From: a virus
IMG/VR virus record: IMGVR_UViG_3300035698_017414
Location: 1 to 26,819 of that record
Reading direction: 5' to 3' (one strand)
Length of the DNA: 26,819 nt
This document shows, piece by piece, positions 4,300-26,714 of the stretch. Under the pieces are notes generated by a model. The model was not told the origin of the DNA. It did not search any database and saw nothing but the letters and a program-made list of their open reading frames with translations. Within the stretch, counting starts at the first letter, position 1. Each line of letters starts with the position of its first letter. The translations under genes were made by a program, and so were the position numbers.

Positions 4300-4728
4300 A
4301 TGTTAGACCCTTTTGGTCCTCTAACTATTAGAGAACAAGTTAATGATATAGTACAGATGTTTGATGAAGAAGATGGAAGGGAGTACCGTCCTGTGATAGG
4401 TAAAGTTATCAAGAAGTATGGATATGATATCTCCTTGTTTGTGTTTGGGCAGTTACGGAACGAAATTCATAAACCTGCAAATGTATGGGCATATTCTATG
4501 TTCAAAGCTAAACAGAAATCAGTTCTAACTATGGAAAAGAGTAATAAGCAAAACTGGACAAAGAAACTATCTGATGGTGGTGTAACAGCTATGCTAGATG
4601 CTCTGTTTTTGGAAGGTAAAGTATTAACAGATGACTATGACAAAATATGTAGTATAGAAGATGCAAGAGCCTTGTTGGGTAAGATGATTGAAAGGGAGGA
4701 AAATGGTAGAGCTTCTTACGACAGCTAA
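4300..4728 (+). CDS. hypothetical protein upstream of the helicase
   Basis: This 142-residue protein has its ATG after AAGGAG at the usual distance. The sequence is mainly helical, mildly acidic at the N terminus and charged at the C terminus, with a central region rich in Lys and Trp (AKQKSVLTMEKSNKQNWTKK). It overlaps the DnaB gene by 26 bases, so the two are co-translated. The slot directly before a replicative helicase is often held by a helicase loader, but no loader motif (for example an AAA+ Walker A) is present. The loader idea rests on position only. Confidence 0.65.
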   Translation: MLDPFGPLTIREQVNDIVQMFDEEDGREYRPVIGKVIKKYGYDISLFVFGQLRNEIHKPANVWAYSMFKAKQKSVLTMEKSNKQNWTKKLSDGGVTAMLDALFLEGKVLTDDYDKICSIEDARALLGKMIEREENGRASYDS

Positions 4729-6070
4729 TGAGAGGTACGTTCTTTCTTGTGTCTTAAATAACCCTGAGATGGTTTGGGAAGTTAGTTCAGTTCTTAGTAT
4801 AAGGGATTTTAGTTTAGATGCTAATAAGTATATTTTTTCTTTATGTAGAAAACTAATTGAAGAAGGAAAAGAACTGGATGAAGCTACTATTGATAATGGT
4901 TTAAATAAAGAGGTACGTAAGATTATAGAGAGGGTATCTCCTGATAAAACAGTTGCTACATATATAAGAGCGTTGAAAGAATCGCCTCATTCAGTGAAAA
5001 ACATGAATGATAATGTTAATAGTATAAAGAAGAAGTCTGTTATACGTCAGTTGTATAGTGAGTTTGATGATATGAAGCTTGAACTTGCTGATAATAATGA
5101 TAGTAGAAGTATTGCAGAGCTTGTAGCGTATTGTGAAGACCGTATAGTGGACTTGGGAGTATCAAATGAGTCTTTAGCCTCTACTCATCAGATAGCAGAT
5201 GGGCTTAGGACTTTTGTAGAGGAGAGGGCTAAATTTCCTGTTGAGGTACCTGGGATACGGACTGGGTTTTCTAAGTTAGATGTTTCTTTTGGTGGTTTGC
5301 GTGGTGGGCAACTAACAGTTATTGTTGCTCGTCCAAAGACGGGTAAAACATCTTTATTGTTAAACTGGGCAAGACACATTGCTATTGACCAGGAAATTCC
5401 AATTCTAATGCTTGATACAGAAATGGAAACATCAGAGGTAAACACTAGGCTATTGTCTATGATGGCAGATATTGAAGAACGTAAGATTATTAGTGGACTT
5501 TATTCAAAGAACGAAGATGAAAAGGAAAGAGTTTTTAAGGCTCTAAGGTTACTTGAAAATGCTCCACTATATCATATTTATATGCCAGTATGGGATTTTG
5601 ATACTATACTAGCCTATGCACGGAAATATAAAGTACGTTACAATATAGGTGCGTTGTTCTTTGACTATATAAAGCTACCTGACCGCGCTAATCTACACTC
5701 TGCCCAGGAATATGTGCATCTTGGTCAACTAACTACTGACCTTAAAAATAAGATTGCTGGTAAGTTGGATATTCCTGTAGTTACAGCTGGACAAATGAAC
5801 AGAATGCGTTTAGGAGAAGAGGTTGGCACAGACCAAATAGCAGGGTCTGACCGAATACTTCATTTTGCTAATCATTTGTTAGCATTAAGGAAGAAAACAC
5901 ACGAGGAGATTGAAAAGAGTGGTGGGAAAACAAACCTATCATTATCAGTGTTGGCAAGTAGAAACGCTGAGAGTGGGGCTGTATTCGATTTATACTTTAG
6001 AAGACCTAAGTTACAGATGTATGAACTAGGCGTAAGTAAAGAATCAGAGGCTACATGGAATGAGTATTAG
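4703..6070 (+). CDS. dnaB: replicative DNA helicase, DnaB family
   Basis: The hexameric helicase unwinds the fork ahead of the polymerase. AAAGGGAGG immediately precedes the ATG at 4703, so this start is preferred over the in-frame TTG at 4688; the product has 455 residues. An N-terminal helical domain (VLSCVLNNPEMVWEV and following, about residues 1-110) is followed by a linker with GIRTGFSKLD and the RecA-like domain. Walker A is ARPKTGKTS at 209-217, then MLDTEM, a FFDYIKLP Walker B-like strand, and VVTAGQMNR. Its length matches bacterial DnaB. It overlaps the primase gene by 11 bases, consistent with the usual helicase-primase partnership. Confidence 0.95.
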   Translation: MVELLTTANERYVLSCVLNNPEMVWEVSSVLSIRDFSLDANKYIFSLCRKLIEEGKELDEATIDNGLNKEVRKIIERVSPDKTVATYIRALKESPHSVKNMNDNVNSIKKKSVIRQLYSEFDDMKLELADNNDSRSIAELVAYCEDRIVDLGVSNESLASTHQIADGLRTFVEERAKFPVEVPGIRTGFSKLDVSFGGLRGGQLTVIVARPKTGKTSLLLNWARHIAIDQEIPILMLDTEMETSEVNTRLLSMMADIEERKIISGLYSKNEDEKERVFKALRLLENAPLYHIYMPVWDFDTILAYARKYKVRYNIGALFFDYIKLPDRANLHSAQEYVHLGQLTTDLKNKIAGKLDIPVVTAGQMNRMRLGEEVGTDQIAGSDRILHFANHLLALRKKTHEEIEKSGGKTNLSLSVLASRNAESGAVFDLYFRRPKLQMYELGVSKESEATWNEY

Positions 6071-23743: not shown

Positions 23744-23772
23744 TTGACAAACCTCGTTATATGTGGTATAAT
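23744..23772 (+). promoter_or_regulatory. consensus promoter for the Ro60/RNA operon
   Basis: TTGACA (23744-23749) and TATAAT (23767-23772) are 17 bases apart, with a TGTGG extended -10 identical to that of the promoter at 2875. An A/T-rich tract with several A-runs lies upstream (23705-23743), which may act as an UP element. Transcription should start near 23780 and run through the Ro60 gene into the RNA array. Confidence 0.88.
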
Positions 23773-23819: not shown

Positions 23820-25358
23820 ATGTCAAAGTTTAATCCTGCGCCAAAGGGAAGTAAGACAGTTAACTATGAAGGCGCAGATGCCTATCAGTTAACCCCACAA
23901 GTAGATTTGTATTCTGCTGTAGTTACAAGTTCTCTTGAGCCAAAGTTTTATGAATCAGCTGGTGACAGAGTAGAGCGTGTTCGTAATTTGGTTAAGAAGA
24001 ACTCTCCTGAGTTTGTAGCTAAGTTAGCAGTTTATACAAGAGAGAAGATGTATTTACGGTCAATGCCTCTTGTTTTGGCTGTTGAACTTGCCAGAATTCA
24101 CAAAGGCGACTCTCTAGTAAGCAAAACGGTTGAGCGTGTCGTAAAACGCGCTGATGAACTTACTGAACTATTGGCATATTACCAGCTTGCTAATAAGAGA
24201 ACTGATGAAAAGAAGTTAAACAACTTGTCAAAGCAGATTCAAAAGGGTCTTGCAAATGCGTTTAATAACTTTGATGAATATCAGTTTGCTAAGTATAATA
24301 GAGATAATGAGATTAAGATTAGGGATGTTCTGTTTCTTGTTCACCCACATCCAAAAAGTATGACTCAACAGTTGCTATTTGATAAAATAGTAAATGATAC
24401 ATTAGAGGTACCTTATACATGGGAAGTAGAACTATCAGAACTTGGTCAAAATGCCTTTGATAATGATATTGCTCGTAAAGACGCTTTCAAAGGAAAGTGG
24501 GAGGAACTTATCAAGTCTGATAAACTTGGATATATGGCTATGTTGAGAAACCTACGTAACTTTATAGAGAACGATGTAGGGGTTGAATGCATGGAAATAG
24601 TAGCCGATAGATTAGCAGACCCTAATCAAGTGCTTCGTTCTAGACAGTTTCCATTTAGATTCTTGTCTGCATACAGAAGCATAAAGGGAATAACATCTCC
24701 ACACGTATCAAATATTGTTGATGCTCTTGAGAAAGCAATAGCAGTAAGCATTGATAATGTATCTGGGTTTAGTGCAACAGAAACGTACCTAATTGCTTCT
24801 GATGTTAGTGGTTCAATGAGTGTGCCTATTTCACGTAATAGTACCGTTCAGAACTACGATATTGGTCTTGTATTGGGTATGTTAGCTCGTTCTAAGTGTA
24901 AAAGTGTTGCAACTGGTATTTTTGGAAGCGATTGGAAAGTTGTGAACTTGCCACAAGATAACATTTTGGCTAACTCAGACCACTTGGACGAATTGAGTCG
25001 TTTAGTAGGATGGGCTACCAATGGTTGGAAGGTTATTGCTGATATACACCAACAAGGTGTTAAGTTTGATAAAGTAATGATGTTCACGGATATGCAATTA
25101 TGGGATACTCAAAATTACTGGGGTGGTAATTCTACTAAGAATACCCTTAAGGATTATTGGAATATGTATAAGAGAGATGTAAACCCTGATGCAAAGTTGT
25201 ATATATTCGACCTTGCTGGTTACGGAAATAGCTTCCTTGACACAAACAACAAGGATGTATTTTTGATAGCTGGTTGGAGTGAGAAAGTATTTGATGTGTT
25301 AGACTCTATAGAGAATGGTGAGTCTGCCATTTCAGAAATAAACAAAATTGACCTTTGA
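23820..25358 (+). CDS. TROVE-domain (Ro60/Rsr) RNA-binding protein
   Basis: AAAGGAG (23807-23813) points to the ATG at 23820 rather than the in-frame ATG at 23802; the product has 512 residues, normal for the family. Residues 1 to about 310 are the helical-repeat ring that binds Y RNA and the 3' ends of misfolded RNA. It opens with MSKFNPAPKGSKTVNYEGAD and contains SRQFPFRFLSAYRSI. The rest is a vWA domain with an intact MIDAS, DVSGS (Asp328, Ser330, Ser332), and MFTDMQLWD (Asp424). In Deinococcus, the Ro60 homologue Rsr with its Y RNA acts with PNPase in RNA decay. The five RNA units begin only 11 bases after the stop. Confidence 0.96.
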   Translation: MSKFNPAPKGSKTVNYEGADAYQLTPQVDLYSAVVTSSLEPKFYESAGDRVERVRNLVKKNSPEFVAKLAVYTREKMYLRSMPLVLAVELARIHKGDSLVSKTVERVVKRADELTELLAYYQLANKRTDEKKLNNLSKQIQKGLANAFNNFDEYQFAKYNRDNEIKIRDVLFLVHPHPKSMTQQLLFDKIVNDTLEVPYTWEVELSELGQNAFDNDIARKDAFKGKWEELIKSDKLGYMAMLRNLRNFIENDVGVECMEIVADRLADPNQVLRSRQFPFRFLSAYRSIKGITSPHVSNIVDALEKAIAVSIDNVSGFSATETYLIASDVSGSMSVPISRNSTVQNYDIGLVLGMLARSKCKSVATGIFGSDWKVVNLPQDNILANSDHLDELSRLVGWATNGWKVIADIHQQGVKFDKVMMFTDMQLWDTQNYWGGNSTKNTLKDYWNMYKRDVNPDAKLYIFDLAGYGNSFLDTNNKDVFLIAGWSEKVFDVLDSIENGESAISEINKIDL

Positions 25359-25369
25359 AAATAGAATTA

Positions 25370-25426
25370 GGTGCCGTAGATAAGAGATACTTCTTATGGG
25401 AAACATACTCTTATCGTTTGTAGCCC
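25370..25426 (+). ncRNA. Y-like RNA unit 1
   Basis: This is the shortest unit (57 nt). GATAAGAG (25379-25386) pairs perfectly with CTCTTATC (25408-25415). A terminal hairpin, TATG-GGAAA-CATA (25395-25407), stacks beneath the second strand, leaving ATACTTCT as a one-sided bulge. The base is closed by GGT (25370-25372) with GCC (25423-25425). It differs from the others by GTGCC in the 5' block and TGTAGCCC in the 3' block. Confidence 0.75.
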
Positions 25427-25437
25427 TTCTAATAATT

Positions 25438-25529
25438 GGGTGTCGTAGGTTAGAGCTACTTCATTAAATGTAATGGGAACGTCTAGGTGAATCTTAGGCA
25501 ACAAAATATCTCTAATTGACTGTAACCCC
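25438..25529 (+). ncRNA. Y-like RNA unit 2
   Basis: GGTTAGAG (25448-25455) pairs with CTCTAATT (25510-25517) in 8 pairs, two of them G-U. The base is GGGT with ACCC. The loop carries two local hairpins: CATTA-AATG-TAATG (25462-25475) and CTAGG-TGAAT-CTTAG (25483-25497). The 92-nt length is within the usual range of Y RNAs. Confidence 0.8.
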
Positions 25530-25544
25530 ATTTTATTAAGAACT

Positions 25545-25644
25545 GAGTGTCGTAAAAAAGAGTTACTTCACATTAAGCCCGAAATAGGCGGTAAACTAGT
25601 CCGCAAATGACAAAAAACTAGATTCTCTTTTTGCCTGTAACCTC
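25545..25644 (+). ncRNA. Y-like RNA unit 3
   Basis: AAAAAGAG (25555-25562) pairs perfectly with CTCTTTTT (25625-25632). The base is GAGT with ACCTC, which needs one bulged C, so the substitution of G by A in the 5' block is partly balanced by T in the 3' block. The 55-nt loop contains GCGG (25588-25591) and CCGC (25601-25604) as a hairpin. It is the longest unit (100 nt). Confidence 0.8.
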
Positions 25645-25666
25645 TGTTCTTTATTAGGTAATTATT

Positions 25667-25730
25667 GGGTGTCGTAGATTGGACTTACTTCGTTACTTTC
25701 AAAACAAAACGTCCTTTCGCTTGTAACCCC
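25667..25730 (+). ncRNA. Y-like RNA unit 4
   Basis: GATTGGAC (25677-25684) faces GTCCTTTC (25711-25718): a 4-bp GGAC/GTCC stem, two U-U mismatches, then GA/TC. The other units use AGAG or ATAG here, so both strands have changed together. The base is GGGT with ACCC. The loop is an A/C-rich stretch without obvious pairing. Confidence 0.75.
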
Positions 25731-25739
25731 TCATTTTTA

Positions 25740-25813
25740 GGTGTCGTAGGGTATAGTTACTTCGTTAAATTAAACAAAGGGCTCCTAAACCAAACTTTAT
25801 CCGGTTGTTACCC
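25740..25813 (+). ncRNA. Y-like RNA unit 5
   Basis: GGGTATAG (25749-25756) pairs with CTTTATCC (25795-25802) at seven of eight positions, with one U-U mismatch. The base is GGT with ACC, and the 3' block reads TGTTACCC. It ends about 15 bases before the ribosome site of the next gene, so the mature RNA end must be made by cleavage. Confidence 0.75.
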
Positions 25814-25844
25814 TAAACTATTAACACAGGAAAGGTGTGAATCA

Positions 25845-26489
25845 GTGAGAACTATTTTTCACATTGAAGGAGAAAATGATTACTTGTCAGTGGCAAGTGT
25901 CTACAAATGGATGGATAACTATCTTTTTTATACAAGTACAAAGTATGGAAAAGAGGCTTGTATTAACCACAACCTGAAGTTCCGCTATATTAGAGATGCA
26001 AGAGTCATGGCGTGGGAAATGGCTCGTTGGAAGCCAAAGGTGTATGTAGATGTACCATTTACACCTGTTACGTTTCCACGTAATGGTGAGATTTCAGTAT
26101 TCCTACCTAATTCTTTAGAGCCGATTCTATCAAAGAAGATGCTACTTTATTCATACGTATGTTGCCCAAGTCAGAGCTATGCTGATATACTTAAATCAGA
26201 ACTTAATGTATCAGAAGATAGTCTGAAGGTTATAGGGTATCCTCAACTTGAAACGTGGGATGAAATAGCAAATACTAAACATAAGATTCCAGTTTTAGAA
26301 GCGTCTATCCTCCAGTCTGTACGTGAGAATGAGGAACAGAGTTTGGTATTCAAACCTGATGGTAATGCTGGATTACGTGTGGCTACATTTCTTCATCAAA
26401 TAGGGATTGGAAATACAAACTTTCAAATGAGTTTGTCTTCTGAACCTAACTTATATAAGTTTCTTCAAAAACGTGAAAAGCGGTTTTAG
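25845..26489 (+). CDS. GT-B-like glycosyl/glycerophosphotransferase fragment
   Basis: The frame is open from 25665 through RNA units 4 and 5, but CAGGAAAGGTG at 25827-25837 sets the start at GTG 25845, giving 214 residues. The central region (YVCCPSQSYADILKSEL, then LKVIGYPQLETWDEI) resembles the CDP-glycerol glycerophosphotransferase family, where a 'S-x-x-x-A' helix is followed by G-x-P-R-x-D. The usual Arg and Asp are replaced by Gln and Glu. The end (LYKFLQKREKRF) is abrupt for a GT-B protein. A possible continuation in another frame is listed next. Assignment is tentative; it could be a different phage-specific family. Confidence 0.6.
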   Translation: MRTIFHIEGENDYLSVASVYKWMDNYLFYTSTKYGKEACINHNLKFRYIRDARVMAWEMARWKPKVYVDVPFTPVTFPRNGEISVFLPNSLEPILSKKMLLYSYVCCPSQSYADILKSELNVSEDSLKVIGYPQLETWDEIANTKHKIPVLEASILQSVRENEEQSLVFKPDGNAGLRVATFLHQIGIGNTNFQMSLSSEPNLYKFLQKREKRF

Positions 26490-26657: not shown

Positions 26658-26683
26658 CAATGCAGGGACGTCTCATTCTAAGG

Positions 26684-26714
26684 GCAGGGGCAATTAACAG
26701 CTCCTGCTTTTTTT
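26684..26714 (+). terminator. rho-independent terminator
   Basis: GCAGGGG (26684-26690) pairs with CTCCTGC (26701-26707) in a 7-bp stem with one G-U, a 10-nt loop, and then seven T residues. It is the only strong intrinsic terminator found on the right side and probably ends the Ro60/RNA transcript. From 26715 to the window end I see no gene or confident signal. Confidence 0.88.

What the first reader, a model, noticed from the sequence alone, without database searches (positions are those of the whole stretch)
23820..25813. Phage Ro60 (TROVE) gene followed by five tandem Y-like RNAs
Seen: an intact TROVE-vWA gene, then, 11 bases after its stop, five co-oriented units sharing GGTGYCGTA, TACTTC and GNYTGTAACCC around a variable paired stem. 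Known: Ro60 proteins bind Y RNAs, usually one or a few per genome, and some phages carry Ro60 homologues. Inferred: these units are its RNA partners, amplified into a family. A five-member array in one phage is, to my knowledge, not described. Different loop lengths (14-55 nt) could let each RNA recruit a different host target or nuclease.
Basis: partly seen in the sequence, partly recalled or inferred. Interest (0 to 1): 0.93.

Follow-up and report, generated by a model that had tools for sequence, protein, structure and literature searches.

The report
Five tandem phage Y RNAs beside Ro60
A phage carries a gene for the RNA-handling ring protein Ro60 followed directly by five small RNA genes that fit the docking site of Ro60's partner RNAs; such clusters turn out to be common beside Ro60 genes in phages and bacteria, but this one is unusual because none of its five RNAs carries the usual tRNA look-alike part.

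Summary
23820-25358 encodes an intact Ro60 protein (TROVE + vWA). It is followed by five abutting, co-oriented RNA units (25364-25819) with one shared architecture: outer stem, single bulged U, two pairs, asymmetric loop, 8-bp stem, UACUUC, then a 14-55-nt loop. A covariance model trained on 48 units from other loci, window excluded, finds all five (34-50 bits), and the stems covary. In 62 sources (502 kb) its 71 matches all lie on the Ro60 strand. In 13 whole genomes or records all 21 matches fall at the Ro60 locus. Conversely, 38 of 47 viral stretches picked by the RNA motif alone encode TROVE, all on the same strand.

Some members match Rfam YrlA weakly. What is distinctive here is that none of the five carries the tRNA-like domain, they follow the Ro60 gene with almost no linkers, and one consensus promoter lies upstream. 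Expression, processing, Ro60 binding and recruitment of different partners by different loops are untested.

The parts
23744..23772 (+). sigma-70 consensus promoter TTGACA-N17-TATAAT with TG before the -10, presumed promoter of the Ro60/Y RNA transcript
   Evidence: 12 of 12 matches; consensus match only, function inferred
23820..25358 (+). phage Ro60 homologue (TROVE + vWA), 512 aa
   Evidence: Pfam, PHROG 850, profile match to Ro60 structures, predicted fold
25364..25432 (+). Y RNA unit 1, loop 14 nt
   Evidence: R1 50.5 bits
25433..25534 (+). Y RNA unit 2, loop 47 nt with two predicted hairpins
   Evidence: R1 45.4 bits, 9.3 bits with filters off; loop fold
25540..25649 (+). Y RNA unit 3, loop 55 nt
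   Evidence: R1 47.4 bits, not listed with filters off
25662..25733 (+). Y RNA unit 4, loop 19 nt; weakest outer stem, two mismatches in the 8-bp stem
   Evidence: R1 33.8 bits, filters off; pairing counts
25734..25819 (+). Y RNA unit 5, loop 31 nt
   Evidence: R1 43.2 bits, 27.5 bits with filters off
25845..26489 (+). downstream gene of unknown family (GTG start after AGGAAAGG), apparently in the same transcript
   Evidence: ORF list; no Pfam or PHROG match
26680..26711 (+). terminator-like hairpin, possible end of the transcript
   Evidence: two such sites found, two expected by chance, so weak

Best explanation
The locus is a phage Ro60 operon. One host-type promoter (inferred) drives the Ro60 mRNA and a tail of five abutting Y RNAs. 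Each unit folds so that its 5' and 3' ends form a stem with a single bulged U and an asymmetric internal loop, then an 8-bp stem capped by UACUUC and a variable loop; this is the Ro60 docking site (architecture shown by covariation, binding inferred). The units are probably cut or trimmed from the long transcript and survive as RNAs of about 65-110 nt because Ro60 binds them (inferred). As in known Ro60 particles, the bound Y RNA covers and gates the surface on which Ro60 receives misfolded or broken RNA. Long-loop members (units 2 and 3) could also tether a partner such as a nuclease; the short-loop ones (1, 4 and 5) have little room for that and would act as lids or stabilisers (inferred). 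The phage would use the particle to sort or degrade structured RNA during infection (inferred).
For: Model R1, trained without the window, finds all five units. Window-only pairing is 81% of cells, against 70.5% when shuffled (0 of 500 shuffles as high) and 41-52% when slid. With 14 units of close relatives it is 87%, covariation 0.71 against 0.23, and the inner pair 11-52 is G-C 8, U-A 6, C-G 5 without exception. Close relatives at 37-57% protein identity (L021-L028) carry the same kind of units beside Ro60. R1 hits: 71 in 502 kb of 62 sources, all on the Ro60 strand; 21 of 21 in 13 whole genomes or records lie in Ro60 loci. Reverse test: 38 of 47 motif-selected viral stretches encode TROVE on the motif's strand. 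Rfam YrlA matches lie on units of other phages, E 9.5e-14 to 2e-5, below its cut-off. The protein is predicted to fold like Ro60, including the phage phiLo Ro60 9l5y. Arrays upstream of Ro60 in L025 and L033 start 18-32 nt after 12/12 promoters. In Listeria phage CKA15, abundant non-coding RNAs lie near an Rsr gene and its authors propose Y RNAs (PMC12282133).
Against: No expression or binding data exist for this phage. Single-unit folding energies are not clearly better than shuffles; for units 3 and 5 the z-scores are positive, and the whole array folds no better than shuffles. The filters-off run scored unit 2 at only 9.3 bits and did not list unit 3, while the default run gave 45-47 bits. 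A strict descriptor found no unit in 34 of 95 phage loci. No clear promoter or terminator separates the units, so discrete small RNAs require processing. No experimentally proven Y RNA sequence could be compared directly.
Confidence: 0.85

Rival explanations
1. The array is a cis element in the 3' part of the Ro60 mRNA: Ro60 binds its own transcript at five sites and controls its stability or translation, or several rings assemble on one uncut RNA. It would not be a set of separate small RNAs.
For: Units abut (linkers of 0, 5, 12 and 0 nt by R1 boundaries), follow the stop codon by 11 bases, and no clear promoter or terminator lies between them.
Against: In most relatives the units lie upstream of the gene (119 upstream, 19 downstream in phages; 145 and 1 in bacteria) and some arrays start just after a consensus promoter, so position after the gene is not the conserved feature. 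The docking stem is shared with YrlA-like RNAs, known as separate RNAs (PMC8394870).
Confidence: 0.1
2. The units are decayed or divergent tRNA or tRNA-like genes, as phage Ro60 loci often sit in tRNA clusters.
For: Several phage Ro60 genes lie among tRNAs, and some Y-like units hold tRNA-like parts.
Against: No tRNA is predicted in the window, no T-arm occurs in the five loops, and the conserved part is the non-tRNA stem.
Confidence: 0.02
3. The units are another kind of repeat: type III antitoxin RNA repeats, DNA-binding iterons or terminators.
For: Tandem, co-oriented, similar units.
Against: Base-pair-preserving changes show selection on RNA; unit lengths differ; there is no toxin gene or T-run; the association is with Ro60 in both search directions.
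Confidence: 0.02

Closest known systems
YrlA bacterial Y RNA (Rfam RF02553)
   Same: RNA gene beside a Ro60/Rsr gene; closing stem formed by the 5' and 3' ends. The stem signature of the window units is shared with other-phage RNAs that the YrlA model recognises below its cut-off.
   Different: YrlA carries a tRNA-like domain (PMC8394870); none of the five window units does, and the YrlA model does not match the window.
Ro60/Rsr proteins, e.g. Deinococcus radiodurans Rsr (2nvo), vertebrate Ro60 (1yvp), Thermus phage phiLo Ro60 (9kop, 9l5y)
   Same: TROVE + vWA architecture, invariant DxSxS motif, Ro60 fold by prediction.
   Different: About 27-33% identity to the annotated phage homologues aligned; closest metagenomic relative 57%.
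Vertebrate Y RNAs
   Same: Docking stem with one bulged nucleotide and an asymmetric loop, as described for vertebrate Y RNAs (PMC4726728).
   Different: The bulge is U instead of C, the sequence differs and no Rfam match was found.
Listeria phage CKA15 Rsr and its abundant non-coding RNAs (PMC12282133)
   Same: Phage Ro60 homologue with nearby, very abundant non-coding RNAs proposed to be Y RNAs; its Rsr protein was found in virions.
   Different: In the related phage A511 the three tandem units just upstream of Rsr carry another motif (UAACAGCAAUUACU) and are not found by our descriptor or R1.

Membership tests
Ro60/Rsr protein | TROVE domain | tested here: met
   PF05731 E 1.9e-31
Ro60/Rsr protein | vWA domain with intact DxSxS metal site | tested here: met
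   PF25045 E 1.5e-8; D328, S330 and S332 invariant
Ro60/Rsr protein | Ro60 fold | tested here: met
   AlphaFold pLDDT 88; Foldseek 1yvp TMq 0.74, 9nep 0.71, 9kop 0.62; prediction only
Ro60-bound Y RNA (broad class) | gene next to a Ro60 gene | tested here: met
   11 bases after the stop codon; association general
Ro60-bound Y RNA (broad class) | docking stem shared with Y-like RNAs beside other Ro60 genes | tested here: met
   R1 trained without the window, 33.8-50.5 bits
Ro60-bound Y RNA (broad class) | stable small RNA bound by Ro60 | not testable with these tools
   needs RNA-seq and pull-down
YrlA (RF02553) | match to the Rfam model | tested here: not met
   no match in the window at gathering, nor in 25300-25900 up to E 5
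YrlA (RF02553) | tRNA-like domain (D and T arms) | tested here: not met
   loops of 14-55 nt, no T-arm; no tRNA by ARAGORN
Vertebrate Y RNA | sequence and structure match to an Rfam Y RNA family | tested here: not met
Type III toxin-antitoxin RNA repeats | near-identical short repeats before a toxin gene | tested here: not met
   units 63-80% alike over 41 nt, of different lengths, after a Ro60 gene

The most novel reading that the evidence does not exclude
Phage Ro60 is used with a set of interchangeable adaptor RNAs: the phage encodes several Y RNAs with one common docking stem and different loops, so that one ring protein forms several particles with different jobs. In this phage the set lacks the tRNA-mimic members; the uncut array might hold several Ro60 rings on one RNA, and could even enter the virion, as the Rsr protein of Listeria phage CKA15 does.
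Probability: 0.2. Interest if true: 0.82.

Novelty: new variant of a known kind. Interest (0 to 1): 0.6.

Why it matters
Bacterial Ro60 has been studied in few organisms, and why phages carry it is unknown. A precise docking signature with covariation, tied to Ro60 genes across many phages, gives a direct handle: predicted RNAs and binding sites in cultured phages (crAss001, Xanthomonas, Caulobacter and Brevundimonas phages, Thermus phiLo with a solved Ro60 structure) that can be tested now. In the sampled loci, phage units are shorter-looped than bacterial ones (loops of 35 nt or less: 69 of 143 against 25 of 147). This suggests that phages use Y RNAs more often as lids or stabilisers of the ring than as tRNA-mimic tethers, which is a testable difference.

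Tried and rejected
The search for related loci with the single window protein found nothing; an alignment of phage homologues was needed. An exact pattern built from the window's own motif gave no viral hit; the general motif did. Rfam at gathering and at E 5 found nothing relevant in the window. Single-unit and whole-array free-energy folding was uninformative. Listeria phage A511 was checked for the same units because of the CKA15 expression data: no convincing descriptor or R1 match, but three tandem units of another motif. The key papers on bacterial Y RNAs (Chen 2013, 2014; Sim 2018, 2020) are not in the library, so whether multi-copy arrays are already described there could not be checked. 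An own-genome search with R1 failed technically and was replaced.

Full report
Observation. The window is a 26.8-kb virus record. The 512-residue protein at 23820-25358 carries TROVE and the Ro60 vWA domain and the conserved metal-site residues. It is predicted with good confidence to fold like Ro60 (pLDDT 88; Foldseek best hits are vertebrate Ro60 structures and the Thermus phage phiLo Ro60). Eleven bases after its stop begin five co-oriented units. They were found as one direct-repeat family and align around GTGYCGTA, TACTTC and TGTWRCC.

Architecture. Comparing 187 units from Ro60 loci gives one register: an outer stem whose four innermost flanking pairs form in 85-97% of units, then c1-m7 (97%), one unpaired U (c2, 92% U), c3-m6 (97%), c4-m5 (99%), an asymmetric internal loop, an 8-bp stem, one free base, UACUUC, and the variable loop. 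Over all units c4-m5 is mostly G-C. In the window it is C-G in unit 1 and U-A in units 2-5, a replacement on both sides that keeps the pair; some close relatives have U-A or C-G too. The outer-stem pairing and the core pairs were not used to select units, so they are the fair test (the core and 3' motif letters were partly used); the 8-bp stem was part of the selection and its pairing is biased upward. On the window alone 81% of cells pair, against 70.5% in shuffles (0 of 500) and 41-52% when slid by 1-3 columns. Pairing each 5' arm with its own 3' arm gives the highest total of all 120 permutations.

Independent detection. A covariance model (R1) was built from 48 units of other phages and bacteria, with the window left out. 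It finds all five: 25364-25432, 25433-25534, 25540-25649 and 25734-25819 at 43-50 bits with default filters, and 25662-25733 at 33.8 bits with filters off. The two runs disagree on the long-loop units 2 and 3 (weak or absent with filters off). I did not resolve why; long insertions are a likely reason.

Association with Ro60. A fixed-geometry descriptor gave 432 hits on the Ro60 strand, 47 on the other strand and 14 in shuffled sequence over 1.23 Mb. R1 gave 71 hits in 62 sources, all on the Ro60 strand; some of these are training units. In 13 whole genomes or records, including two bacterial genomes of 5-6 Mb, 21 of 21 hits fall inside the Ro60 loci (for the bacterial genomes only the first 150 candidates were scored). 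In the other direction, 47 viral stretches were picked by the RNA motif alone; 38 encode a TROVE protein, each on the strand of the motif. One further stretch, L182, is only 1.4 kb long and comes from a contig with the length of Caulobacter phage CcrPW, which has a TROVE gene.

Arrays are common. With the strict descriptor, 42 of 95 phage loci have two or more units, 9 have four or more and 3 have five or more. Bacterial loci: 43 of 80, 6 and 3. Examples are Xanthomonas phage 10KY502B (5), CcrColossus (5-6), crAss001 and cr112_1 (5-6 by eye) and L067 (7 with the looser threshold). Most lie upstream of the gene; the window, the crAss phages and L067 have them downstream.

Two kinds of loop. Loops of 35 nt or less never carry a T-arm (0 of 94). 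Of loops of 70-95 nt, 72 of 86 do, and these are YrlA-like: in the Xanthomonas, Brevundimonas and Caulobacter phages the Rfam YrlA model matches such units with E down to 9.5e-14, below its curated cut-off. The window's loops (14, 47, 55, 19 and 31 nt) have none. The units therefore share the docking stem with YrlA-like RNAs but are not YrlA.

Transcription. A 12/12 sigma-70 promoter with TG before the -10 lies at 23744-23772, and the first terminator-like hairpin after the array is at 26680-26711. No clear promoter or terminator lies between the units. In relatives L025 and L033 a 12/12 promoter, and in L024, L026 and L089 an 11/12 one, ends 4-32 nt before the first unit. This fits RNA genes, but 11-12 matches also occur occasionally in the controls.

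Mechanism. Shown here: the protein family, the RNA architecture, its conservation by covariation, and the tie to Ro60 genes. Inferred: transcription, processing, Ro60 binding, and function. From published work on Ro60 particles (PMC8394870, PMC4726728) and general knowledge, Y RNA binds the outer face of the ring, Ro60 binding protects the RNA, the RNA can control access of substrate RNA, and it can tether PNPase. The short-loop units would act as lids; units 2 and 3 have room for a partner-binding part.

Verdict. The finding is real and well explained as phage Y RNAs. Its uniqueness is overstated, because arrays are frequent beside phage Ro60 genes. The distinctive points are the absence of any tRNA-like member, the tight packing behind the gene and the swapped inner pair. 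I rate it a new variant of a known kind, interest 0.6. Whether multi-copy arrays were already noted in the founding papers could not be checked. The window is a fragment, so a tRNA-like member elsewhere in this phage genome cannot be excluded.

Noticed in passing
L015 (phage csAssE-Sib) 2666-2738 and 2811-2884: Annotated tRNA-Tyr and tRNA-Lys lie inside the loops of Y-like units; each tRNA starts at or within a few bases of UACUUC. They look like whole tRNAs capping a Ro60 docking stem.
   Followed up: partly
L011 (crAss001) 4693-4836 and 4940-5086: tRNA bodies with open acceptor stem, D and T arms, in which the anticodon arm is replaced by a Ro60-type stem; Rfam tRNA matches the first (and the cr112_1 homologue) across an insert of about 72 nt. 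The reverse topology of YrlA.
   Followed up: partly
L010 (Xanthomonas phage 10KY502B) 2601-2670 and 2822-2889: A predicted tRNA-Glu and an annotated tRNA-Thr overlap Y-like units and are probably misannotated YrlA-like RNAs.
   Followed up: partly
L181 (Listeria phage A511) 25288-25553, minus strand: Three tandem hairpins with UAACAGCAAUUACU (third copy CACAGCAAAUACU) and perfect but different stems lie just upstream of the Rsr gene: probably a divergent phage Y RNA array.
   Followed up: partly
L067 4774-5890: Seven Y-like units downstream of a phage TROVE gene, most with tRNA-like loops; one loop holds a complete tRNA in normal order.
   Followed up: partly
L019 (Thermus phage phiLo) 4488-4555: A Y-like unit lies directly downstream of the gene whose Ro60 structure is solved (9kop, 9l5y): a ready RNA-protein pair.
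   Followed up: no
window 25845-26489: 214-residue gene of unknown family in the same apparent transcript.
   Followed up: no
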